The notes under the pieces: generated by a model | Told to the model about the DNA's origin: nothing | What the model saw: the letters and a program-made list of their open reading frames with translations, nothing else | The model's database searches: none | Translations under genes and position numbers: made by a program | Assembly: GCA_012517355.1 (NCBI GenBank) | Contig: JAAYVD010000111.1 | Location: 1-64,000, forward strand | DNA from: Candidatus Rifleibacteriota bacterium | Lineage (GTDB): Bacteria; Muiribacteriota; Ozemobacteria; Ozemobacterales; Ozemobacteraceae | Length of the DNA: 64,000 bases | Direction: 5' to 3' | Part shown: piece after piece, positions 3,704-28,095 of the stretch | Position numbering within the stretch: the first letter of the stretch is position 1 | How the letters are laid out: every line of letters begins with the position of its first letter

Positions 3704-6221
3704 TTCCCGCCGCGGCTCGATCTTCCTGATGGCCTTGACCGCCCTGACGGTCCTGTTCATCCTCGGGTTTTCGGTCACCTTCTTCACCGGTTCGGAAGAC
3801 TGGTCCTCGGCCATCTCCTACGAATCGGAGGTGGCCTTCAACCTGGCCGAGTCGGCGGTCGAGGAGTTCGTGGCCCGCCTGAAGAACTCGCTCAACCACG
3901 ACGACGCCAACAACCAGTTGTACAAGGTGCTGCGCAGCCACCAGACCAAGGTCGACGACGAGATCCCCCTCGATGCCGCCCAGGTGGCCCGCCTGACCAC
4001 CTATACCCGCGAAACCGCGCGTCAACTCTACGGCATCCAGTTCGGACAGGGGCTCGTCTCCTCGAGAGACTTCGAGGTGTCGGGGGTGATCAAGCTCAAG
4101 CACATCAACGCGGTCGAGGCGACGTCCGGCAACACCAAGCTCTACACCATCAATAAAGACCTCAAGGAGAAACAGGGGGAACTGACCGTCACCGCGCGGG
4201 TCACCTATCGCGGCAAGACGGCCCGGGTCACGCTGGTCTTCCTGATCCGGGTGGTCAAGTCGTTCGTGCCGCCGTTCAACTACTTCACCCTGTTCGTCAA
4301 GGACGGCACCATCTTCAGCGGATCGTTCTTCAACCCCTGGAATTCGAACGTCGGCGAGCAGCAGAAGAACCTGTATCTCGACAATGGCTGGACGTCGATT
4401 CCCGGGCAGCAGAACTTCGACGCCATCCGGGACGTCAGCTACTGGGAGAAAGCCCTCGCCCTCGACGGGCCGGGTGCCCAGGTGCCTCCCGGCCGGGTCT
4501 ATCTCGGCCAGGACCCCACCGCCCAGTTGCCACCCTCGATCATCCTGCAGTCGACCAACGGCACCAAGCTGCTGACCGACCACCCGTCCGACGGGGCGAA
4601 CAAGTTCTCGCAGATCAACGGGCAGGAGAACTTCTTTTTGAAGTTCGACATCGACTGGATGGGCATGAAGGACTACGTGAAGAAGTACATGGCCGCCCAG
4701 GGCCAGGAGAAGACGAAGGAAGGCTGGATCTTCACGGGCTGGGACAACGACACCAAGATCCGGGTCCGCAACGTCGGTTCCGGCTACGAACTGGTCGACA
4801 ACAAGACCTCCCTCGGAGAGCCGACCTTCGTCAACGCCATGCAGTCCTACAACAACTTCCGCACCACCCGCATCAGGGGGTCGAAGACCGGCGACGAAGC
4901 CAAGATGATGGAGCGCCTGTATCCCGAGGTCGACAAGAGCGGGCTCGACCTGTTCGGGTTCGTGCGCTGCGTGCCACCCCTGCGGCCGTCGGGCGGCACC
5001 ATCGAGTCGAAGTTCCTGTCGCCGACGCTGGTCTACGGGCCCGTCTGGCGCATGTATTACCGCATCGTCTCGGTCGAGAAGGACGGCCAACGCCTCGAGT
5101 TGCCCTTCCTGGGCACCGAGCCCCCTTCCGACGGTTCCGCCGCCCTGATCCCCCTGCCGCCCGGCATCGACCGCGACAAGAAACTGGCCGCCTCGCAGGC
5201 TGCCTTCGTGTTCGAGGTGTTCGGGGTGCCCAAGCCGCACATCGACAACCTGGTCAACACCTGGGACAAGCTTCCCGACGGGCTGACCAAGATCAAGAAG
5301 TTCGAGAACTTCATGAGCAACTCCGGCGTCGAGCCCTACAACATGGGCCTGGGCAACTTCCTGCAGCGCATCGCCGACAAGAAGGAGGTCTACAGCGGGC
5401 AACTCGAACAGCACCTGCTGCCCTTCCTCGCCAACGAGCCGTATGCCGGCATGCCCGGGGCGCTGACCTCGATCGTCAACCAGTCGCCGGTGCGCGAATT
5501 CTACGAGGGCGATCTGTGGTGGGCCCTGCCCGACGACATGAGCGCCTACCTGATGGATTTCTACTTCATCCCGCGCAGCACCGAGGACTTCTTCCGCGGC
5601 CGCACGACGATCTCGATGGGCGGCACCTCGTATGACCGGTTCGAGTTCAAGTACATCAACGACGTGCGGGCCTACCTGTCGGGGGCGAAGAACCAGACCC
5701 TCGAACTGAACGGCATCCTGGCCCTCAACGACTCCGACCCCCTGCTGCTGCGCAACCTCAACTTCCGCGGGAAGGGCGTCATCTACTCCAGCCCCATGAT
5801 GGGCGGGGGCCCGATCGTCTTCTCCGGCGACTTCATGCCGGCCGGGGCGACCGGCGCGGGCGGCGCCGCAGCCACCGGCGCCAACCCGGGCCGCGACATG
5901 ATCACCATCGTCGCCCCGCAGATCTACATCGACACCTCCACCGCCCAGAGCGATCCCTGCTACATCGAGGCCAACCTGATCTCGGTGCTGGGCCCGCTGG
6001 TGGTCAAAGGGAACAAGAGCCTGCGGATCAAGGGATCGGTGGTCGCCCCGCGCCTGAACCTCGACGAGACCTTCAAGGATTCGCCGGGCGGCGTGATCAT
6101 CTACAACCCGCTCAACTCGATCTGGCGGAAAGACGTTCCCTCCCTGATGGACGAGATGTACGTGGCCAAGATCGTCACCGGCGGCGTCGGCCGGTTCGAG
6201 TGGAAGTTCGAACATGACTGA
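3693..6221 (+). CDS. PilX/GspK-like large minor pseudopilin (triad A)
   Basis: 842 residues. The N-terminus is a short basic leader followed by one hydrophobic helix (SIFLMALTALTVLFILGFSV), then polar sequence with NLAESAVEEF, the usual start of PilX/DUF4900-like proteins that export through a type IV pilus or type II secretion machine. The rest is a large periplasmic or surface domain without a catalytic motif I recognise; a Gly/Ala-rich stretch (GATGAGGAAATG) lies near residue 715. The last 130 residues resemble a beta-rich polymer-forming region (YIEANLISVLGPLVVKGN). Coupled to the lipoprotein before it and overlapping the next gene by 8 bases. Confidence 0.65.
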   Translation: MATDSRRGSIFLMALTALTVLFILGFSVTFFTGSEDWSSAISYESEVAFNLAESAVEEFVARLKNSLNHDDANNQLYKVLRSHQTKVDDEIPLDAAQVARLTTYTRETARQLYGIQFGQGLVSSRDFEVSGVIKLKHINAVEATSGNTKLYTINKDLKEKQGELTVTARVTYRGKTARVTLVFLIRVVKSFVPPFNYFTLFVKDGTIFSGSFFNPWNSNVGEQQKNLYLDNGWTSIPGQQNFDAIRDVSYWEKALALDGPGAQVPPGRVYLGQDPTAQLPPSIILQSTNGTKLLTDHPSDGANKFSQINGQENFFLKFDIDWMGMKDYVKKYMAAQGQEKTKEGWIFTGWDNDTKIRVRNVGSGYELVDNKTSLGEPTFVNAMQSYNNFRTTRIRGSKTGDEAKMMERLYPEVDKSGLDLFGFVRCVPPLRPSGGTIESKFLSPTLVYGPVWRMYYRIVSVEKDGQRLELPFLGTEPPSDGSAALIPLPPGIDRDKKLAASQAAFVFEVFGVPKPHIDNLVNTWDKLPDGLTKIKKFENFMSNSGVEPYNMGLGNFLQRIADKKEVYSGQLEQHLLPFLANEPYAGMPGALTSIVNQSPVREFYEGDLWWALPDDMSAYLMDFYFIPRSTEDFFRGRTTISMGGTSYDRFEFKYINDVRAYLSGAKNQTLELNGILALNDSDPLLLRNLNFRGKGVIYSSPMMGGGPIVFSGDFMPAGATGAGGAAATGANPGRDMITIVAPQIYIDTSTAQSDPCYIEANLISVLGPLVVKGNKSLRIKGSVVAPRLNLDETFKDSPGGVIIYNPLNSIWRKDVPSLMDEMYVAKIVTGGVGRFEWKFEHD

Positions 6222-6663
6222 CCGTCCCTGCCGGCGCGGGCCCGCCGCGTTCTCGCTGATCGAGGTGCTGGTCGTGGTGATGCTCATCTCGGCCGGCATC
6301 CTGCCCATCTATTCGCTGATCAAGTCGGGCCAGAAACGCATCGTGCGGGCCGACACCCGCGTCATGGCCACCCTGTTCGGCACCTCGGCCCTCGAACTGG
6401 CCCGCACCCTGGGCTATGACCGGGCCCAGAAGCTCGACGCCGACCAGGATTTCCTCGAGCTGAAGGAGAACGCCAACAAGAACGGGTTCAACCTGGAGTT
6501 CGTCCCCAACCTGCAGCCCCTGCTGCCGCTGCCGCAGGGAGCCAAGCCGATGTTCCTGCTCCGCATCCAGATCGTGGTCAGCCCCATCAACCGCACGTTT
6601 TCCGACACCCCGACCCTGCGGTTCGTGACCATCCTCACCGACCCGCGCTACAACTATTATTGA
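6214..6663 (+). CDS. PilV/GspI-like pseudopilin (triad A)
   Basis: 149 residues with a class III prepilin signal: basic leader, then A^FSLIEVLVVVMLISAG with Glu at +5, expected to be cut by a PilD-type peptidase. The remainder is a short globular domain. It overlaps the PilX-like gene by 8 bases and is followed by the PilW-like gene after 7 bases, so the three form one operon. Minor pseudopilins of this type prime pilus assembly or form a short pseudopilus for secretion. It is clearly more diverged from the PilV-like members of triads B and C than these are from each other. Confidence 0.75.
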   Translation: MTDRPCRRGPAAFSLIEVLVVVMLISAGILPIYSLIKSGQKRIVRADTRVMATLFGTSALELARTLGYDRAQKLDADQDFLELKENANKNGFNLEFVPNLQPLLPLPQGAKPMFLLRIQIVVSPINRTFSDTPTLRFVTILTDPRYNYY

Positions 6664-7762: not shown

Positions 7763-10700
7763 TCATCGTGGGGAGGAGGGCGGATTCCAGGCGAACAGGG
7801 TCAGCGGGCGGGCCTTGCCCTTGAGCGTGATCTCGCCGAACGGGGTCACTCCCTCGTCGGACGGCAGGAGCGCCCGGGCGGAGTCGGAGAGCAGGAACCT
7901 GGGGCATCCGGCTTTCTCCGCCACCGCATTCCCGGTTCCCGCCTTCTCGGCCACCGCTTCGATGCGGGCGGCGGTGTTCACCGGGTCGCCGATCATCGTG
8001 AAATCGCGCTTGCTCCCCACTCCCAGGAAGCCGCGAATGACGGTGCCGGCATGCGCCCCGACGACCACCGGCAGGGGCAGCCGGCCCTCGGCTCCGGCCT
8101 GGGCCACCCCCTCCAGGACCTGCCGCAGGGCCGCGCCGGGAGCGCGGCTTCCACCCGCGAGGGGAAGCACGGCCAGGATCTTGTCGCCGATGATCTTGTC
8201 GATGTCGGCCCCCGCCCCGGTCAGCACGGAGCAGAGCACCGCGGTCTGGCGGGCCAGCCGGTCGAAGGAGGCGTGGCGGGCGTCCCGGTCGGAACCGGGA
8301 AGGTCCTGGTCGGTGGCCGTCGCCTCGGAAGCGCCCTGGAAGCCCCGGCTGCCCAGGACCAGGATGAGGCAGTCCTGGCGGCTTCCTCCCGCCTCCTCCT
8401 CGCTTCCGGCCGTCCCCCCCGCCCCGCCGGTCGACCGGCGGGCCTGCCCGGAGACCATCCGGCCCATCAGTTCCCGTTCCTCGAGGCCGCGGGCCATCCG
8501 GTTGAAGGCCCGGCACAGGTCGCCCAGCTCGTCCTGACGGGCGGTCGACACCCGCCACTGGAAATGGCCGGAGGTCACCTGCCGCATCCCGTCGGTCAGC
8601 ATCCGGAGCGGTTCGAGGAGGTCGTCGGCCACCACCATGGCGAGGAGCAGGATCGCCCCCAGGGCGGCCACCAGCAGCAGCAGGAACCAGGTCCGGGTCG
8701 CGTTCGCCGCGTCCAGGATCGGCGCCTCCGCGGCCAGCCCCACCAGGAGATGCCCCTCGTAGCGGATTCCCGGCCGGGCCTCGACCAGCAGGGGTTGATC
8801 GCCCGCCCGCGTGCGGGTGCTGAAGGGCTGGTTGCCGGCCACCACCCAGCGTCCGATGGCGCGAAGCCGCGGGAACCAGGAACCGAAGCGGGGATTGACG
8901 AAATACCCGACCTCCGTCCGCAACTGCCCTCCCAGTCCGAACCGGCCGGCCTGCCGCCTGGTCACCTGGTCGAAGGCGGACGACTCGGGCGCGGGGTAGA
9001 ACCAGGCGACCACTCCCTCGGGACGGTCCAGGTCCGGGACCACCTCGGTGAGTTCCATCATCCGTCCTGTCTGGGCGAACAGGTAGACGGCCTGGCCCAT
9101 GCCGTTGGTCAGCCGGAAAAGGTGGTCCGGCCCGAACACGGAACGAAGAACGTCCAGGCCGGCGGCCAGGGTCATCTCGGTCTTCAGGGCCTCCCCGTCC
9201 AGGCCCGGCGCGCCCGGGGAATGGCGCGGGCCCTTCCCGGCCGGAGAGGCCCGGCGGCCCGACGCGCCTTTTTCCAACTGGTCCAGCATCGAGCGGCCGA
9301 TCATCCGGGCGACGTCCCCGAGCGCCCGGCCGGCGTCGGGGGCCTCGGAAAGCGACTGGACGTAGGTCCAACCCTCCCGGCCGACCACGATCATCTGGTA
9401 CGGGAAGCTGTTCAAGACCGGGTCGGTCCGGGTTTTGACCGAACGGTCCATGTATGTCTCCAGATCGGCCCGGGCGACGGGATCCTCCGGGTTCCGGTTC
9501 AGCCGCCGCAGGGTCCGCAGGAAGGCCGGCCGGCGGCACCGGTACCGCAGGCGGCTCTGGACCAGCAGCCGGGACAGCAGGGGCCGGCGCTCGGCCACCT
9601 CCATCTCCTGCAGCATGTCCAGCCGGGTCCGGCGGCGTTCCAGGCGGAACTGGTCGACGGTGAACCACTCGGCGAGGAAGAACATCGCCGCCAGCGGCAG
9701 GATGGCCGCGGCCAGCAGGCCCCCCACCAACTGCCCGCGCAGGTGCCGCGCCAGGCCGGCTTCCCGATAGACGGTCTTCCACCAGAGCCAGAGCAGGGCG
9801 GCTCCCAGGATCGCGCCGGCCACGGTTCCCGCCCGGGCGGGGAACGCGGCCGGCATGGTGGGCAGGGGCGTGGCCGCCACCAGCCGGAAAGGAACCCCCT
9901 CGAAGGTCACGGCGGCCGTGGCCAGTTCCCAGCCGGGCAAGCCGGGCAGGCGACTGTCCGCCAGCGTTCCGGTCGCCAGGGGGAAGCGCGGCGAAGCCTG
10001 CCAGGGACCGTCTCCCACCTGGGCGGCCAGCGCGGAATCGGCATCGTCCAGGCCGGTTGCCAGGCGGGAGATCTCGTCCAGGGTGGGCAGGCGGCGGGGG
10101 ACGAACAGGAGCAGGATGCCGACCGGTTGAAAGGATCCCTGCGGCGGGATGGCGGTCAGGGCCGCCGCCGAGGTTGACAGGTTGGGGGCGGGAAAGTCGG
10201 GATGCGGGCGGACGAGGGGATACCAGTAGACCCATTCCGGCCGGCCATCCCGGACGACGGGCCGGAATCGCGCCATCCCTTCCGCGCGCAGGTGGCCCGT
10301 GCTGAAATTCGCCCCCAGGACCTGGCCCAGGCGGGGCAGGAGGTCCTCGATGTACCTGCTCTTCCCCCCGAAGGTGTGGCCGGCCAGGTTGCCGAAGAGG
10401 GCCTTGAAGACCGGGATGTCCTCGGAGGCGACGCCCCAAGCCAGGACGAGGGGTTCCGGCGCCGGAGCCTCGGGGCGGGGAAACCTGGGGTCCACCGCCT
10501 GGAGGAGGAGGCTCGTGGGCTGCCAGCCTTCCGCCCCGAGGGTGGCCAGTTCCCGCAGGGCAACGCGGCGCAGGGAAGCGTGGTCGACGCCGTCCTCCGA
10601 CCAGGGGTGGTCGGAGGCGAGCGTCCAGGCGAGGCGATCCAGGCGCTCCTCCTGGAGGAACTCCCAGACGTTGTTCCGGCGGAAACGGTCGAGCGAGACC

Positions 10701-13700
10701 TGGTTCTGCTGGGCCGCGTCCTCCCGGGCGAGCCGGTCGAGGCGCTGCTCCCGCAGGCGGAGGGCCTGGATGCCCAACCCCCAGGCCACGATCACCAGGG
10801 CGCAGCCGGCCCAGAACACCAGGTGCCGCCAAGGGAGGCCGAAGGGCAGGGTCCAGCCGGGGTCTGTCGTGGTGGGACGACCGGGGTCGGGTTGAGCCAT
10901 CACCCGCCCGTCGACTGGGCCCCCGGTCTCCGGTCCCGGAATGCTCCTGCCGACGGGAGCCGTCTGGCCGGCGGCGTCGAGGGCCGGGCGGGGGGACCGG
11001 CGATCCAGACCGAGGCCGGGGTGGTGACCTGGAACGGGACCGTGGTCTGGCGGGTGGTCCGTGCCGGAACCGGAGGTGAGCATGGGCGATGCATCCGACG
11101 GTTGGCCGCCTGCCGGAATCACGGCGGAGCCCGGCGTGGCGGCGGGCCGCGGCACGAGATCGCCCAACCGGAACACCCGCCCGGTCCCGTCGTCGACGGG
11201 AAGGGCTTCCCAGCCCACCCTCCGGGCGGCGTCGGCGACCCCCCCATCGAAGACGACCGGGCAGTCGGGAAAGGCCTTGGTGCGGGCTTCGAGGGCTGCG
11301 GCCCGCTGCATGGCCGGGCCGGTCACCGCGTAGTCGAGGCGGGTCTCGGGGCTGCCGATGCCGCCGGCCAGGAGGGGACCCTCGGCCAGGCCGATGCCGA
11401 TCCGGTAGGGGAACTCCCCGGCCTTCTGCCGGTCGCGGTTCAGGGCAGCCAGGTGGCCCAGCATCGCCACCGCCGCCGCCAGGGCCAGGCCGGCGGGCGA
11501 TTCCCCCCCGGGGGGTCCCTCGAAGACGGCCATGATGGCATCGCCGACGAACTTGTACAACCGGCCGCCGGCCCGGGCGATGACTGCGGACATGGCGGAA
11601 TAGTGCCGGTTCAGCAGGTCGATGACCTGGTCGGGGGGGTTCCCCTCGCAGATCGGGGTGAAATCCCGGATGTCGGACACCAGGACCACCCCGTGCAGGG
11701 AGCGGGCCTGCATCACGTTCTGCAAGGTCTTCCCGGCCACGATGGCGTCCATGGCCTGGGCCGAGATCAGGGCGGTGAGGCGCTCCCGCTCCTGCAGCCC
11801 CTTGCGCATCCGGCCGAAGGCGCGGGTCAGGGTGCCCAGTTCGTCCCACCGCGTGGTGACCAGCACCCCGCCCAGGTCGCCGCCGGCGATCCGTTCCAGG
11901 CCCTGTTTCAGCTCGAGGACCGGGTCGATGAACCGCCGGTAGACCAGGGCCCCGAACAGCAGCACCCCGGCGAGGGTGGCCAGAAAACCGCCTCCCACCA
12001 GGGCCATGCCGATCGTTTCCTGGCGGTCGATGTCGTCGTGTCCGCACCCGGCGGTCAGGACCAGGTTGTGAAACCGGTTGGAAGGGACGGCCACGAGGGT
12101 GGCCCCATGGCCGGCCCGCACCAGCGTGCCGTGGCGGGCCAGGGCCAGACCGGCCACCCCACGCATGGCCTCGACCTGGTCGACCGGCACGTGCCGGTCC
12201 TGGCGGACCGGCTCGCCCAGGCCCTCCGGGGTGGCCTCGAACACGGTCAGCCACGCCTCCGGTTGTTGCAGGGCCAGGGTATCCGCCGACTGCCGCAGGA
12301 CCATCCCGTCGGTGTCGGCGCTGGTCCAGGCGATGAACAGGACATACCGCTCCACGCCGTCCACCGCGAGGTACTCGTGCAGGTGGTGGGCCTGGAGGCG
12401 GCCGAGGGTGAATCGGAACAGGGTGGCGCGGGTCTGCTCCATCTGCTGGGCGGCGGTGACGTTCATGGTGGCCCCGTAGGCGTCGATCAGGGCCTTGTCC
12501 TCCTCGGCGATGCGGGCGGGCGGCAGGTTTTGCTCCCCGCCGAGGGCGGCAGCCGCCTTCACGCGCAGGTTGCTGACGGTGGCCGCCCGGAAGAACCGGC
12601 ACGAGTGTTCGAGGCTTTCCCTGATCGGCGAGGGGGAGAACCATTCCGCCTTCCGGCTTTCCAGGTCGTACAGGCCGATATAGCTGAGGGGAAGGGGCCG
12701 GGCGAGGCGCTGGAAGTGGTGCCGGACGGCCTCGAGGACACGGGGGTCGCCGGGGGGGCAGGCCCCGACCAGGTCGCGGAAGGAAGCGTCGGTGCAGAGA
12801 CCACGGAACGCCTTCTCGTAATCCCCTTCCAACTGCTGCTTGCCGGATTCGAAGACGGCGAGGCCGGCCTGCAGGCGGGCAGCCAGCTGGTCGAGGGCGG
12901 CCTGCCGGTTCTCGCGGAGCCAGGCGAGCGCCGAGACCCCGAACAGGGTGGTGGGCAGGGCGGCCGCCCCCAGGTAGAGCAGCAGGAACCGTCCGGCCAG
13001 GGAGAGCCGGGGCCAGTGGTCGAGCAGCAGGCCCCGGCCCAGGATCATCACGCCCACGGCCGCCCACCCGGTCACCAAAATCACCAGCCAGGTCGGCAGC
13101 GGGGGAAGGCGGGGCTCGGGAAACACCACGACGGCAATGTGCGGAGCGTCCGTGATTCCGGCGGCAAACACCCGGCTGCGACCAAGCCGGACGTTCCAGG
13201 GCAGCCCGTTCGCCAGCCAGTCGTGCAGCCGTTCCCGGAGCACTCCCAGCTTCGCCCGCCAGGCCTGGAAGCGGGAAGACCGGCGGAGAGCGGGGTCCAG
13301 CACGTCCCCCGCCCCGGTCGGCGACACCTTCAGGAAACCCCGGCGGGTCCGTTCCCCTCCCGCGGGGGACTGGCGCGTCAAGGCGGCCCGGAAGGCGGTC
13401 TCCTCCGCCCCCGGACCGATGGGAACGAGGCAGATGAAGCCGGTCAGGGGCTGCCCCGGGTCCTGGGCGAAGTCCCAAAGCAGCCAGTGGGGTTGCCGGG
13501 CGAAGAGGACGGGGGTTGGCACCCCGCGCTGGGTCTGGGCCAGGGGCCCGGCCGGGGTACCCGTGCCGAACAGGTGCGCGATGACCTTGGGACTGAGGCG
13601 GTCGCTCTTCCAGCGCTCGTCACGGCCGAGGTGACGGTCGACCAGGTAGCGGAACAGCCCCGCCACCGCCCGGTGGCTGACGGCGGTGGGGGTCGAGGAG

Positions 13701-14485
13701 GCGACGAGCACGACCGGGTCGGGCGCGGGGGACGGGAGAGGGACCACCCGCGGAGGGTCCGTGTCACCGGCAAAAGGGCGGGCGGACGGAACCATGGTAC
13801 CGGCGGAAACCCCGGCGGCAGTCTCCCGAGGGCCGACGGCCGGACGGGCGGACGGGGCACCCACTCCGGCGGGTTCCCCCGGGGCGGTTCCCGACCGGCC
13901 CCCGCCTGCTCCTTCCGCGGCGGGCGGGGCGAAGACCCACCAGTGGGTAACGAGGGGGAGACGGGTGAGGCTGGGAAAGGCCTGACGGGCCTCGCGCGCG
14001 GCCTGCCGCCGGAGAACCGCCATGTTTTTGGCGACACTCCCGGTTCCCGCCGCCGCCCGCGGCCAGGAGGTGGGGTTGGCTTCGCGCCGGTCTGTCCCCT
14101 GGCGGTGCGCGGAAGGGGCGTTCTCCGGTGCCATCGGTGGCGGCGGAGGGGTATTGCCGACCTCGTGTTCGACCCCCGACCGGCCGAGGGCGCGCACCAG
14201 GTCGGCCAGCCGCCGACGCAGCGCCAGGCCCGATCTGGCCAGCCAGCGTGGCACCCCCGACTCGGCGGTCAGGTTTTCCAGTTCCTCGCGGGCGGTTTCG
14301 TCGAGGTGGCGCTCCCGGCGGGCGAGGTCGGCCCGGGCGAGGTAGCGTTCGGCGAACACCAGCGAGGCCAGGGGCAGGGAAAAGAGCAGGATGCCCAGGA
14401 CGAAACGCACAGTGGCCAGGGCGGCCGAAGAGGGGGGAGCCGACGACACGACTGGGTTTCCTTCCGCTGTTCCGCTCGTCCGCAC
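7763..14485 (-). CDS. tandem transmembrane class III adenylate/guanylate cyclase
   Basis: One ORF of 2240 residues holding two full membrane cyclase modules. Each has an N-terminal helix, a large extracytoplasmic part, two further membrane segments, a HAMP-like stretch (RRFIDPVLELKQG; ADDLLEPLRMLTDG) and a class III catalytic domain. The first catalytic domain (C1) keeps both metal aspartates, Asp938 in SDIRDF and Asp982 in VGDAIMAV, but has Gln1060 and Ala1064 where the transition-state Asn and Arg should be. The second (C2) has Gly2045 instead of the first metal Asp, keeps Asp2101, and has intact Asp2161, Asn2170 and Arg2174 (GDPVNTAARIE). The two domains are therefore complementary. The GTG start has AAGGG 7 bp upstream. 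A Pro/Gly-rich linker of about 100 residues joins the modules. Product (cAMP or cGMP) is inferred; Lys and Asp at the base-binding sites of C2 favour ATP. Confidence 0.85.
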   Translation of the reverse strand: MRTSGTAEGNPVVSSAPPSSAALATVRFVLGILLFSLPLASLVFAERYLARADLARRERHLDETAREELENLTAESGVPRWLARSGLALRRRLADLVRALGRSGVEHEVGNTPPPPPMAPENAPSAHRQGTDRREANPTSWPRAAAGTGSVAKNMAVLRRQAAREARQAFPSLTRLPLVTHWWVFAPPAAEGAGGGRSGTAPGEPAGVGAPSARPAVGPRETAAGVSAGTMVPSARPFAGDTDPPRVVPLPSPAPDPVVLVASSTPTAVSHRAVAGLFRYLVDRHLGRDERWKSDRLSPKVIAHLFGTGTPAGPLAQTQRGVPTPVLFARQPHWLLWDFAQDPGQPLTGFICLVPIGPGAEETAFRAALTRQSPAGGERTRRGFLKVSPTGAGDVLDPALRRSSRFQAWRAKLGVLRERLHDWLANGLPWNVRLGRSRVFAAGITDAPHIAVVVFPEPRLPPLPTWLVILVTGWAAVGVMILGRGLLLDHWPRLSLAGRFLLLYLGAAALPTTLFGVSALAWLRENRQAALDQLAARLQAGLAVFESGKQQLEGDYEKAFRGLCTDASFRDLVGACPPGDPRVLEAVRHHFQRLARPLPLSYIGLYDLESRKAEWFSPSPIRESLEHSCRFFRAATVSNLRVKAAAALGGEQNLPPARIAEEDKALIDAYGATMNVTAAQQMEQTRATLFRFTLGRLQAHHLHEYLAVDGVERYVLFIAWTSADTDGMVLRQSADTLALQQPEAWLTVFEATPEGLGEPVRQDRHVPVDQVEAMRGVAGLALARHGTLVRAGHGATLVAVPSNRFHNLVLTAGCGHDDIDRQETIGMALVGGGFLATLAGVLLFGALVYRRFIDPVLELKQGLERIAGGDLGGVLVTTRWDELGTLTRAFGRMRKGLQERERLTALISAQAMDAIVAGKTLQNVMQARSLHGVVLVSDIRDFTPICEGNPPDQVIDLLNRHYSAMSAVIARAGGRLYKFVGDAIMAVFEGPPGGESPAGLALAAAVAMLGHLAALNRDRQKAGEFPYRIGIGLAEGPLLAGGIGSPETRLDYAVTGPAMQRAAALEARTKAFPDCPVVFDGGVADAARRVGWEALPVDDGTGRVFRLGDLVPRPAATPGSAVIPAGGQPSDASPMLTSGSGTDHPPDHGPVPGHHPGLGLDRRSPRPALDAAGQTAPVGRSIPGPETGGPVDGRVMAQPDPGRPTTTDPGWTLPFGLPWRHLVFWAGCALVIVAWGLGIQALRLREQRLDRLAREDAAQQNQVSLDRFRRNNVWEFLQEERLDRLAWTLASDHPWSEDGVDHASLRRVALRELATLGAEGWQPTSLLLQAVDPRFPRPEAPAPEPLVLAWGVASEDIPVFKALFGNLAGHTFGGKSRYIEDLLPRLGQVLGANFSTGHLRAEGMARFRPVVRDGRPEWVYWYPLVRPHPDFPAPNLSTSAAALTAIPPQGSFQPVGILLLFVPRRLPTLDEISRLATGLDDADSALAAQVGDGPWQASPRFPLATGTLADSRLPGLPGWELATAAVTFEGVPFRLVAATPLPTMPAAFPARAGTVAGAILGAALLWLWWKTVYREAGLARHLRGQLVGGLLAAAILPLAAMFFLAEWFTVDQFRLERRRTRLDMLQEMEVAERRPLLSRLLVQSRLRYRCRRPAFLRTLRRLNRNPEDPVARADLETYMDRSVKTRTDPVLNSFPYQMIVVGREGWTYVQSLSEAPDAGRALGDVARMIGRSMLDQLEKGASGRRASPAGKGPRHSPGAPGLDGEALKTEMTLAAGLDVLRSVFGPDHLFRLTNGMGQAVYLFAQTGRMMELTEVVPDLDRPEGVVAWFYPAPESSAFDQVTRRQAGRFGLGGQLRTEVGYFVNPRFGSWFPRLRAIGRWVVAGNQPFSTRTRAGDQPLLVEARPGIRYEGHLLVGLAAEAPILDAANATRTWFLLLLVAALGAILLLAMVVADDLLEPLRMLTDGMRQVTSGHFQWRVSTARQDELGDLCRAFNRMARGLEERELMGRMVSGQARRSTGGAGGTAGSEEEAGGSRQDCLILVLGSRGFQGASEATATDQDLPGSDRDARHASFDRLARQTAVLCSVLTGAGADIDKIIGDKILAVLPLAGGSRAPGAALRQVLEGVAQAGAEGRLPLPVVVGAHAGTVIRGFLGVGSKRDFTMIGDPVNTAARIEAVAEKAGTGNAVAEKAGCPRFLLSDSARALLPSDEGVTPFGEITLKGKARPLTLFAWNPPSSPR
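14097..14183 (+). repeat. R1 repeat inside cyclase gene (antisense to the gene)
   Basis: Begins CCCCTGGCGGTGCGCGGAA, nearly identical to the start of the copy in the CsgG-like gene, then CATCGGTGGCGGCG, GGGGTATTGCCGACC and CGTGTTCGACCCCCGACC. In the cyclase it encodes the Pro-rich segment NTPPPPPMAPENAP between the first membrane helix and the sensor region, without breaking the frame. Confidence 0.75.
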
Positions 14486-25339: not shown

Positions 25340-27769
25340 TCAGCGCCCTCCCGCGCCAGAGGCGCGGCCCGCATCGCCGCCAGGGTTTCCGCCCCGATCG
25401 TCGAGGAGCAGGGTCCCGATGACCGGCCCGGGCTCGGCGAAATACCAGGTGTAGCGCACGTCACGGCCCCAGGTCAGGTTCCGGTTCCCTGGCGTCCCCG
25501 GCTTCGGCCGGCCGTCGATATCATGGACGACGGCCGAGAACCCCGCGCGGGGGCCGGTCAGACCCAGCGAACCGCGCCGCAGGACCAGCACGCCGCGATA
25601 GCCCCTGGCATCGGCGGTGCCGGTCACCCGCACGTGCGGCGTGGACTGAGCAGGATGGAAGACCTCCCGCCACCGCAGGCCCGAGCCGACCACCATGAGG
25701 TCGGAGGTTCCCCTTTGCCGCCCCGGATGGCTGGGGGACCCACCCGGTCCGCCCACGGCGGCGGGTTCCTCGCGCCGCGGAGCCACCGAGACCAGGAGAT
25801 CGTCTGACCCGCCCCATTTCATGCCGTCGCCCCGCGTGTCGAGGAAGAACTCGATGCTGTCACCTCGGCCCATGGCGTCCCGGGCGAACCCGTTGACCGG
25901 GTTGGGGTCGTGCACCTCGAACCGCACCAACAGCAGGCTCGGGGTGTACGCGACCTGGATGGTCGTTTGGAAGGCGGGGGAAGGGTTGTATCCCTGCTGG
26001 AGATGGTTGGCATCGAGCGTGATGGCCGGCAGGTCCTGCCAGGCACCGGCTTCGGCCCCGCCCAGACGGACGGCCAGGGGTCCGGCAACCGGGGTGGCGC
26101 GAAAAGTGGGCCGCTCCCACGGCAGGAAGGGATTGGTGCGGACGATCGCCGCCGGCGCGGGGGGCGGGGGCCGCCGGCCGACGACCAGGCCGGCCTTCTG
26201 CAGGCCGCGCTCGACGCGGGAATCGGCCATGAACCAGCGCCAGACCCGGCCGGTGCGATGGTTCTCGATGGCGAGCAGCAGCGGGCCCTGGTTGATCGCG
26301 TAGGCGTCGGTGGCGACGAATCCGGCATCGAGGTTGAACGAGTCGGCGAATCCGAACCGGCCCCACAGGCGGTCGCCCAACCGCTCGTAGAGATGCCGCA
26401 GGGAGCGGACGGCCAGGTCGGGGGCGACCGTGATCGCGCATCCGGCCGCGGCCGGGGCCACCGTCCCGTCGACGATGGCGACGCCCGGAGGCGCGCCGTA
26501 GGCGCGGTAGCCCGACGGCCCGATGCAGGCGGTCAGGCCCCACCGGTCCTCGTCGAAGGTGCGGAAGGCGCGGCGCAGGTCCAGGCAGAACTGCCGGTTG
26601 GCCAGGGTGGCGCAGCGCGAGTTCTCGAAGTAATCGGCATCGGCGTCCGCCCGGTTCCGGAAGTCGATGAACAGGTGCGAGAACTGGTGCGTGAACAGGG
26701 GCGGACAGCCGATGAACACCTGGCCGCCGTATTCCCCCCAGGGCCGGCGCATGGCCCGCCAGCCGGTGTCGGCGATGGCATGCCGGGTGGCACCCATGGC
26801 CAGGACATACAGCAGGTGTGACTCGCAATAGTGGTCCCAGGACGACTCGAGGAACCCGCTCTCCGGCTTCCACCCCATGCGGGGGAAAAGGCCGCCGGCC
26901 GTCATCCAGGCCCAGTCGACCCGGTCGAGGAGCCGGTCGGCCAGCCCGACCAGTTCCGGGTCGTCGGCGAAACAGCCGCGGGCGGTCACCACCCCGGCCA
27001 GCAGCAGGGCGGTGTCGATCGAGCTGATCTCGCAGTTCCACATCCGCGCCCCGGTGCGGGCATCGACGAAATGGTAGAAGAACCCCCGTTTCTGGAACAT
27101 CCGCCCGAGAAAGAAGCGGAAGGTGCGGACGATCAGGTCGCGGGCCGCGCGCCGCGGCATCCAGCCACGCTCCGCACCCACGCACCAGGCAGCCAGCCCG
27201 AACCCGGTGCCGGCGATGGTCGCCGGGCTGTATCCGAGGCCGACCGGCCGGCGGTTGTCGGCACGATCGAGAACCAGCCCGTTGTCGGGGTTCGCCGCCT
27301 CGACGAAGTAGGCGAAGGCCCGTCGCTGGATGAGGTCGAGCATGGCGTCGTCCGAGAGGCCCGCCGCCACCCGGGCGGGTGGCAACACCCGGTTGGGAGC
27401 GACCGCCCCGGCGGCCCCGGCCAGCAGCCAGGAAACGGCCAGCAGCAGGAGAACAGCTGCATACCCCCAGGCCCAACCCCCGCGCCCTCGGCCGGGGCGG
27501 CCCTTTTGCGATGCGGGAAACTCGCGTTTCGCGCCGCCATCCGTGGCGGCAAGGGGGCACTTCCGACGTCGTCCCGGCCGGCTGCCGGCCGGCCGATCCC
27601 GGCCGGGACGGTCGGCCCCCGCGGCCAGCGCGAAACGGTCGGGCCGCACCGCCGGCCGTGGCGGCCAAGGGGCACTTCCGACCTCGTGTCGGTCGGGACC
27701 GGGTCGGCCGACCCTCTCCCCCGAAGAGTGGGCGGGGCGTCTCTGGCAGAGCGTGGCGGTTCCTGGCAT
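25340..27769 (-). CDS. glucoamylase-family (PF10091-like) hydrolase with CBM9-like C-terminus
   Basis: About 809 residues. After an unusual N-terminal stretch of about 90 residues comes a hydrophobic segment (YAAVLLLLAVSWLLAGAAG), then the glucoamylase-type alpha/alpha barrel: RRAFAYFVEAANPDNGLVLD, SIDTALLLAGVVTAR, WDHYCESHLLYVLAMG, FTHQFSHLFIDFRN, SFNLDAGFVATDAYAINQGP, matching COG5368/GH144-type proteins that act on glucans. The last 250 residues resemble a CBM9/DOMON domain (LLLVRFEVHDPNP; GDSIEFFLDTRGDG; NRNLTWGRDVRYTWYF). ATG 27769 has GGGAG 4-5 bp upstream; there is no start codon between it and the signal segment, because two R1 repeats fill that interval. A third R1 lies in the CBM9-like part. 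Likely exported polysaccharide hydrolase; the substrate is unknown. Confidence 0.75.
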   Translation of the reverse strand: MPGTATLCQRRPAHSSGERVGRPGPDRHEVGSAPWPPRPAVRPDRFALAAGADRPGRDRPAGSRPGRRRKCPLAATDGGAKREFPASQKGRPGRGRGGWAWGYAAVLLLLAVSWLLAGAAGAVAPNRVLPPARVAAGLSDDAMLDLIQRRAFAYFVEAANPDNGLVLDRADNRRPVGLGYSPATIAGTGFGLAAWCVGAERGWMPRRAARDLIVRTFRFFLGRMFQKRGFFYHFVDARTGARMWNCEISSIDTALLLAGVVTARGCFADDPELVGLADRLLDRVDWAWMTAGGLFPRMGWKPESGFLESSWDHYCESHLLYVLAMGATRHAIADTGWRAMRRPWGEYGGQVFIGCPPLFTHQFSHLFIDFRNRADADADYFENSRCATLANRQFCLDLRRAFRTFDEDRWGLTACIGPSGYRAYGAPPGVAIVDGTVAPAAAGCAITVAPDLAVRSLRHLYERLGDRLWGRFGFADSFNLDAGFVATDAYAINQGPLLLAIENHRTGRVWRWFMADSRVERGLQKAGLVVGRRPPPPAPAAIVRTNPFLPWERPTFRATPVAGPLAVRLGGAEAGAWQDLPAITLDANHLQQGYNPSPAFQTTIQVAYTPSLLLVRFEVHDPNPVNGFARDAMGRGDSIEFFLDTRGDGMKWGGSDDLLVSVAPRREEPAAVGGPGGSPSHPGRQRGTSDLMVVGSGLRWREVFHPAQSTPHVRVTGTADARGYRGVLVLRRGSLGLTGPRAGFSAVVHDIDGRPKPGTPGNRNLTWGRDVRYTWYFAEPGPVIGTLLLDDRGGNPGGDAGRASGAGGR
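25686..25765 (-). repeat. R1 repeat inside CBM9-like domain (sense to the gene)
   Basis: On the minus strand: CCATCCGGGGCGGCAAAGGG then CCTCCGACCTCATGGTGGTCG. It encodes HPGRQRGTSDLMVVGSG between two beta strands of the CBM9-like domain, in frame. Confidence 0.7.
27498..27585 (+). repeat. R1 repeat in N-terminal coding part of glucoamylase-like gene, copy 1
   Basis: GAAACTCGCGTTTCGCGCC, then GCCGCCATCCGTGGCGGC (perfect 7-bp stem) and TTCCGACGTCGTCCCGG. Antisense to the gene, encoding KCPLAATDGGAKREF just before the signal segment. Confidence 0.9.
27612..27705 (+). repeat. R1 repeat in N-terminal coding part of glucoamylase-like gene, copy 2
   Basis: GCGAAACGGTCGGGCCGC, GCCGGCCGTGGCGGCC, CACTTCCGACCTCGTGTCGG. 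Second head-to-tail copy next to 27498-27585, in frame in the same gene. Confidence 0.85.
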
Positions 27770-28095
27770 CTGGCTCCCTCGCAAAGAGGTTGGGGAAAAG
27801 CCCGAAGGCCTCCCGTCGCGGTCGATGGAAAGATTATCGCCGACGGGGGAGCTCACGGCAAGGGGTGCCGTGCGCGGACCCAGGATGCCACGAGGAGGAG
27901 CCCCCCCCCCGACGCGGTTGATGTCTTCAACCCCGGCCGGCGGAGGGCCCCCCGGCAGTGGGCGAAACGGGCGTTTCGCGCCGCCATCCGTGGCGGCACA
28001 GGGGTATGGCCGACGTCGTGTCGGTCCGGTCGGGTCCCCGGTGGATTGGCATGGGCGGCCCGTATGCGCTACAGTGGGAACAGGAGGTGCCGCCC
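27770..28095. other. intergenic region between divergent glucoamylase-like and ankyrin genes
   Basis: Contains one R1 repeat and a C-run (CCCCCCCCCC) near 27900. Otherwise no gene or clear promoter. Confidence 0.55.
27950..28035 (+). repeat. R1 repeat, best-formed copy
   Basis: Three consecutive perfect hairpins: CGAAACGGGCGTTTCG (27963-27978), GCCGCCATCCGTGGCGGC (27980-27997) and CCGACGTCGTGTCGG (28010-28024). Intergenic. Used here as the reference copy. Confidence 0.95.

What the first reader, a model, noticed from the sequence alone, without database searches (positions are those of the whole stretch)
7763..14485. Bacterial tandem membrane cyclase with complementary half active sites, like animal adenylyl cyclases
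Seen: one ORF holds two membrane-HAMP-cyclase modules. C1 keeps both metal Asp (938, 982) but has Gln1060/Ala1064 in place of the Asn/Arg pair; C2 lost the first metal Asp (Gly2045) but keeps Asp2161, Asn2170 and Arg2174. Known: mammalian transmembrane adenylyl cyclases divide metal binding (C1) and base/transition-state residues (C2) in the same way, while bacterial class III cyclases are usually homodimers with two sites. Inferred: the protein folds into an internal C1-C2 heterodimer with one catalytic site and one degenerate, possibly regulatory site. Two different sensor regions would then control one active site.
Basis: partly seen in the sequence, partly recalled or inferred. Interest (0 to 1): 0.85.

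Follow-up and report, generated by a model that had tools for sequence, protein, structure and literature searches.

The report
Bacterial two-half membrane adenylate cyclases
A bacterium of the candidate phylum Riflebacteria carries about 28 predicted membrane cAMP-making enzymes, each built from two different half-active halves that together should make one working site as in animal adenylyl cyclases, an arrangement that reviews describe as eukaryotic and not bacterial.

Summary
The 2240-aa ORF is on the minus strand and has two 4TM-HAMP-cyclase modules. C1 keeps both metal Asp (938, 982) but has Q1060/A1064 for the Asn/Arg pair. C2 has G2045 for the first metal Asp but keeps K2097, T2163, N2170, R2174. 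Two details were wrong: Asp2161 is not catalytic, and C2 keeps its second metal Asp (D2101). It is not a one-off. The genome (Ca. Riflebacteria) has about 88 class III domains: 29 'A' like C1, 29 'B' like C2, 30 canonical. They form 28 A-B pairs, 12 fused and 16 as neighbouring genes. Over 106 pairs from this and related genomes the metal Asps are invariant in A (110/110), and Lys, Asn and Arg in B (107/107; base site 106 Thr, 1 Ser). Lys and the base site were not used to define the classes. A and B diverge in parallel (Mantel r 0.69, p 0.0001). A sister family evolved the same split independently. Best reading: an obligate A:B heterodimeric adenylate cyclase with one catalytic site under two sensor arms. 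There is no biochemistry, and structure prediction did not resolve the dimer.

The parts
7763..14485 (-). whole gene: fused A-B receptor adenylate cyclase, 2240 aa, GTG start at 14485
   Evidence: fused homologues L040, L146, L165, L188, L293
12017..14431 (-). sensor arm of half A: TM1 (res 19-50), outer loop 1, TM2-TM3 (462-521), outer loop 2 (to 823)
   Evidence: hydropathy; same 4-TM layout in most modules of the family; no Pfam match, so ligand unknown
11771..12016 (-). TM4 (824-853) and HAMP of half A
11141..11713 (-). cyclase domain C1 (type A), res 925-1115: D938 and D982 kept, K978 kept, base site A1053, Q1060 for Asn, A1064 for Arg
   Evidence: alignment to solved OaPAC
10841..11140 (-). 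low-complexity linker between the two modules (res 1116-1215), no stop
   Evidence: conserved only weakly
8705..10825 (-). sensor arm of half B: TM1 (1221-1245), outer loop 1, TM2-TM3 (about 1556-1611), outer loop 2 (to 1927)
   Evidence: AlphaFold model of the module has low confidence here
8477..8704 (-). TM4 (1928-1955) and HAMP (1956-2003) of half B
7781..8383 (-). cyclase domain C2 (type B), res 2035-2235: G2045 for the first metal Asp; D2101, K2097, T2163, N2170, R2174 kept

Best explanation
This is a membrane class III adenylate cyclase that works as an obligate A:B (pseudo)heterodimer. The two cytoplasmic cyclase domains pair head to tail. C1 supplies the two Asp that hold the catalytic metal ions. 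C2 supplies Lys2097/Thr2163, which select adenine, and Asn2170/Arg2174, which steady the ribose and transition state. Only one of the two interface sites is complete; the mirror site lacks an Asp, the Asn and the Arg and should not turn over. Each half hangs below its own 4-TM sensor with two extracytoplasmic loop domains and a HAMP relay, so two receptors jointly set one active site. SHOWN: sequence anatomy, residue split, its invariance across 106 pairs, fused and unfused forms, parallel divergence. INFERRED: dimerisation, ATP as substrate, activity only of the mixed dimer, two-input control. The gene is one of 28 such pairs in this Riflebacteria genome.
For: Exhaustive census of the own genome: 29 A, 29 B, 30 canonical domains, 28 linked A-B pairs. 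Over all pairs, both metal Asps 110/110 in A; Lys, Asn, Arg 107/107 and Thr/Ser 107/107 in B. Lys and the base site, not used for the classes, rank 7th and 3rd of 177 columns for 'variable in A, fixed in B'. Losses on the other side took many routes, so what stays is under selection. A and B occur fused (37, always A-B) and as neighbouring genes (69), the classic sign of interacting parts. Parallel divergence: Mantel r 0.69, p 0.0001. Independent repeat of the same split in L305 (AU p 2.2e-4 and 5.1e-5). Complementary mutants of bacterial Rv1625c (D300A + R376A) give a regulated dimer (PMC4821796). 24 cNMP-binding domains in the genome can read the product.
Against: No biochemistry. AlphaFold on homologue L246 (55 C-terminal residues cut, shallow alignment) folded both domains but left their placement open (pTM 0.41), and Foldseek aligned single domains only. 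An orphan B gene (L063) exists. Relatives were chosen because they matched the A and B profiles. Most pairs descend from one ancestral split, so they are not independent events.
Confidence: 0.85

Rival explanations
1. The composite site is the same, but the fused chains dimerise and C1 meets C2 of the other chain. The assembly then has two productive sites and both sensor arms twice.
For: HAMP domains and 4-TM receptors usually work as parallel homodimers (established knowledge); each HAMP here would need a partner. Separate-gene pairs show that pairing in trans is possible.
Against: Fusion in one chain, always A first, fits pairing within a chain; the HAMPs of the two halves could pair with each other.
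Confidence: 0.2
2. The enzyme is an ordinary homodimeric cyclase and the second domain is a decaying or purely structural partner.
For: C2 of the window is the more diverged half (weak and partial HMM match at its N-terminus).
Against: Neither half alone has a complete set of residues; decay would not leave Lys, Thr/Ser, Asn and Arg at 107/107 in B and both Asps at 110/110 in A, nor repeat over 28 pairs.
Confidence: 0.03
3. Both halves are catalytically dead; the pair is a nucleotide sensor or scaffold.
For: Each domain lacks at least one catalytic residue.
Against: Exactly the residues of one complete site are invariant, split between partners; a pure ligand site has no need for the Arg and both metal ions.
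Confidence: 0.04
4. Two separate genes wrongly joined by assembly or by a lost stop codon.
For: Most pairs outside the fused groups are separate genes, and a GC-rich frame stays open easily.
Against: The same in-frame fusion in four other genomes and at another locus of this one, with homology through both modules.
Confidence: 0.02

Closest known systems
Animal transmembrane adenylyl cyclases AC1-AC9 (class IIIa pseudoheterodimers)
   Same: Two membrane-cyclase halves in one chain; metal Asps from C1, Asn/Arg and base contacts from C2; one catalytic and one degenerate site.
   Different: 6-TM bundles without HAMP or big outer domains; Asp and not Thr as base residue; C2 lost both metal Asps; here split inside Riflebacteria and also found as separate genes.
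Soluble adenylyl cyclase sAC/ADCY10 (class IIIb, C1-C2 in one chain)
   Same: Tandem C1-C2 with the same split and a Lys/Thr base pair; A and B profiles match its C1 and C2 respectively.
   Different: sAC is soluble with AAA and TPR-like parts after C2; no membrane sensors or HAMP. A true sAC-like bacterial protein is L306, placed elsewhere in the tree.
Soluble guanylate cyclase alpha/beta
   Same: Separate subunits with complementary half sites, as in the unfused A and B genes.
   Different: GTP-specific residues, haem-NO sensor, soluble.
Bacterial HAMP-linked class IIIb adenylate cyclases (Rv3645 type; CyaB, OaPAC, Cya2 and CyaC catalytic domains)
   Same: Membrane-HAMP-cyclase module; these bacterial domains are the nearest solved ones.
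   Different: Those are homodimers with two complete sites; here each domain is half-active and two different modules are paired.

Membership tests
class III nucleotidyl cyclase | PF00211 catalytic domain over the curated cut-off | tested here: met
   64.7 bits against 21.9, two stretches; both domain folds predicted with high confidence in the homologue L246
class III nucleotidyl cyclase | complete residue set (2 Asp, Lys, base residue, Asn, Arg) available in one dimer interface | tested here: met
   D938, D982 from C1 with K2097, T2163, N2170, R2174 from C2
adenylate (not guanylate) cyclase | Lys plus Thr or Asp at the base-selecting positions | tested here: met
   K2097/T2163; Lys 107/107, Thr 106/107 and Ser 1 in B domains; by residue only, no assay
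pseudoheterodimeric cyclase | two different catalytic domains with complementary losses | tested here: met
pseudoheterodimeric cyclase | physical C1-C2 dimer; only the mixed dimer active | not testable with these tools
   AlphaFold span model left the placement open
animal transmembrane adenylyl cyclase (class IIIa) | two 6-TM bundles, no HAMP | tested here: not met
   about 4 TM per half with long outer loops, and HAMP
animal transmembrane adenylyl cyclase (class IIIa) | Asp as base-selecting residue in C2 | tested here: not met
   T2163
soluble adenylyl cyclase (sAC) | C1-C2 followed by AAA ATPase and TPR-like region, soluble | tested here: not met
   only HAMP and cyclase found, membrane spans present; contrast L306
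bacterial homodimeric HAMP cyclase | each domain holds all catalytic residues | tested here: not met
   C1 lacks Asn/Arg, C2 lacks the first Asp

The most novel reading that the evidence does not exclude
Riflebacteria evolved obligate heterodimeric receptor adenylate cyclases on their own and expanded them to about 28 per genome, each a two-receptor coincidence detector (up to four outer domains, one active site) feeding one cAMP pool: a bacterial sensory layout so far described from eukaryotes.
Probability: 0.45. Interest if true: 0.88.

Novelty: new variant of a known kind. Interest (0 to 1): 0.78.

Why it matters
Published accounts state as a fundamental difference that bacterial class III adenylate cyclases are homodimerising monomers, while pseudoheterodimers arose by duplication and fusion in early eukaryotes (PMC4821796, PMC9552081). 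This family shows duplication, complementary loss and fusion in bacteria, with the stages still side by side: canonical domains, neighbouring A and B genes, fused A-B genes, and a separate split (L305). That makes the origin of pseudoheterodimers, and the question of what a single site under two receptors is good for, directly testable. The number is also unusual: about 88 class III domains in one genome against a reviewed maximum of about 30 isozymes per bacterial strain.

Tried and rejected
A first HMM from seeds partly on the wrong strand was discarded and rebuilt. AlphaFold could not take the window's A-to-B span (1309 aa, limit 1200). The model of the second module had low confidence in the sensor part and the listed structure matches were to cyclases, so the sensors stay unidentified. 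Counting pairs phylum-wide by profile E-value was dropped because canonical domains overlap in score (a canonical domain, L116, at 4e-59). A protein search of plasmids gave only two weak partial hits. Assembly artefact, decay, dead pseudoenzyme and ordinary homodimer were rejected for the reasons given under rivals. Literature searches for bacterial heterodimeric or tandem class III cyclases, and for Riflebacteria cyclases, found no earlier report in the held library; subscription papers are mostly missing there, so this is not proof of novelty.

Full report
WHAT IS THERE. The ORF lies on the minus strand (14485 to 7763, GTG start, 2240 aa) and holds two copies of the layout TM - outer loop - TM-TM - outer loop - TM - HAMP - cyclase. 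Two assignments are corrected. Asp2161 is not a catalytic position: the base residue is Thr2163, seven before Asn2170. C2 has lost one metal Asp (Gly2045) and keeps the other (Asp2101). C1 lost the base (Ala1053), Asn (Gln1060) and Arg (Ala1064) positions. Alignment with solved OaPAC shows the Asn to Gln and Arg to Ala changes directly.

NOT A SINGLE CASE. The genome of the window (7.1 Mb, 184 contigs, 96% complete) has 87 PF00211 matches. I fetched the regions, built an HMM on strong canonical domains and read six catalytic columns in every domain. The domains fall into three classes: 30 without a half-site loss (S), 29 with both metal Asps but a broken Asn/Arg pair (A), and 29 with a broken metal site but intact Asn/Arg (B). 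Classes were defined by the Asps and by Asn/Arg only. The base-binding Lys and the base residue, which structures place on the Asn/Arg side, were not used. They are Lys 29/29 and Thr 29/29 in B, but varied in A (Lys 11/29, Thr 17/29). The A and B domains form 28 linked pairs: 12 fused in one ORF, always A first, and 16 as neighbouring same-strand genes (13 A-B, 3 B-A). One B is an orphan (L063) and one locus has A-A'-B (L042).

RELATIVES. Named matches place the family in Candidatus Riflebacteria (L191, L196, L246). Pairs were fetched from all 17 same-family genomes and from other families of the phylum. These were picked because they matched the A and B profiles, so only the own-genome census is free of that selection. 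Over all pairs both Asps are 110/110 in A. In B, Lys, Asn and Arg are 107/107, with Thr 106 and Ser 1 at the base site. The losses took many routes: B has G, S, A, H, Q, E, T, K, R, N or L at the first Asp, and four keep it but lost the second; A has dozens of Asn/Arg replacement pairs. Among 177 alignment columns Asn, Arg and the base site are the top three for 'variable in A, fixed in B', and Lys is seventh. The 77 loci from outside Riflebacteria held only canonical domains; that scan asked for an intact Asn/Arg motif, so it could have found B types but not A types on their own.

EVOLUTION. With the six catalytic columns left out, 57 of 60 A rows form one group (SH-aLRT 96) close to most B rows. 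A and B identities correlate over the 28 own pairs (Mantel r 0.69, p 0.0001), and within separate (0.75) and fused (0.72) pairs. The window's fused group and the other fused group are separated by unfused pairs in both halves of the tree, with moderate support, so fusion probably happened more than once (inference). In another family of the phylum a dCache pair (L305, no HAMP) has A and B as each other's sisters (SH-aLRT 93), and forcing them into the main groups is rejected (AU p 2.2e-4 and 5.1e-5): the split evolved again. A third case is an sAC-like CHD-CHD-AAA_16-TPR protein (L306).

MECHANISM. Class III cyclases form active sites at the dimer interface, with metals held by one partner and base, ribose and transition-state contacts from the other (established knowledge). 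Only C1 (metals) with C2 (Lys, Thr, Asn, Arg) gives a complete set; C1:C1 and C2:C2 give none. Lys/Thr predicts ATP. Complementary mutants of a bacterial homodimer (Rv1625c D300A and R376A) restore a regulated dimer (PMC4821796), so the mechanism is feasible. A and B profiles mostly match the corresponding halves of tmAC, sAC and sGC. The genome has 24 cNMP-binding domains that could read the product. Not shown: dimerisation, activity, sensor ligands, cis versus trans pairing of the fused chain, any role of the degenerate site. AlphaFold of a homologous span folded both domains but left their placement open (pTM 0.41).

KNOWN OR NEW. Published accounts describe bacterial class III ACs as homodimers and the pseudoheterodimer as an early eukaryotic product, with up to about 30 isozymes per bacterial strain. 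I found no report of this family in the held library. It works like animal adenylyl cyclases but is not one of them: membrane part, HAMP and base residue differ, and the tree shows the split arising within the Riflebacteria set. I rate it a new variant of a known kind.

Noticed in passing
L305:2794-7144 (minus strand; another family of the phylum): Neighbouring dCache-cyclase genes, B type (KKDTNR) then A type (DKDSSR), each other's sisters in the tree: a separate origin of the same complementary split, with another sensor and no HAMP.
   Followed up: yes
L306:1493-6142 (minus strand): sAC-like protein (two cyclase domains, AAA_16, TPR) in a bacterium, with the same metal versus Asn/Arg split (DKDLRA and .KQTNR).
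   Followed up: partly
L042:1647-11526; L063:2830-5256: A locus with A-A'-B genes, and an orphan B-type cyclase gene with no A gene found in the 8.5 kb fetched.
   Followed up: no
L154 and L298: Tandem arrays: three fused A-B genes in a row (L154) and three B-A gene pairs in a row (L298), which suggests growth of the family by local duplication.
   Followed up: no
own genome, 24 places: 24 cNMP-binding domains (PF00027), several in long open frames; possible readers of the cAMP made by the cyclases.
   Followed up: no
L057:177-6481 (minus strand): A and B halves of a pair next to the window's in the tree lie in frames that are not contiguous; a frameshift or an assembly fault is possible.
   Followed up: partly
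window 6214-6663 (+) and 25340-27856 (-): A protein with a pilin-type N-methylation motif and a putative glucoamylase-domain protein lie near the cyclase gene; no clear link.
   Followed up: no
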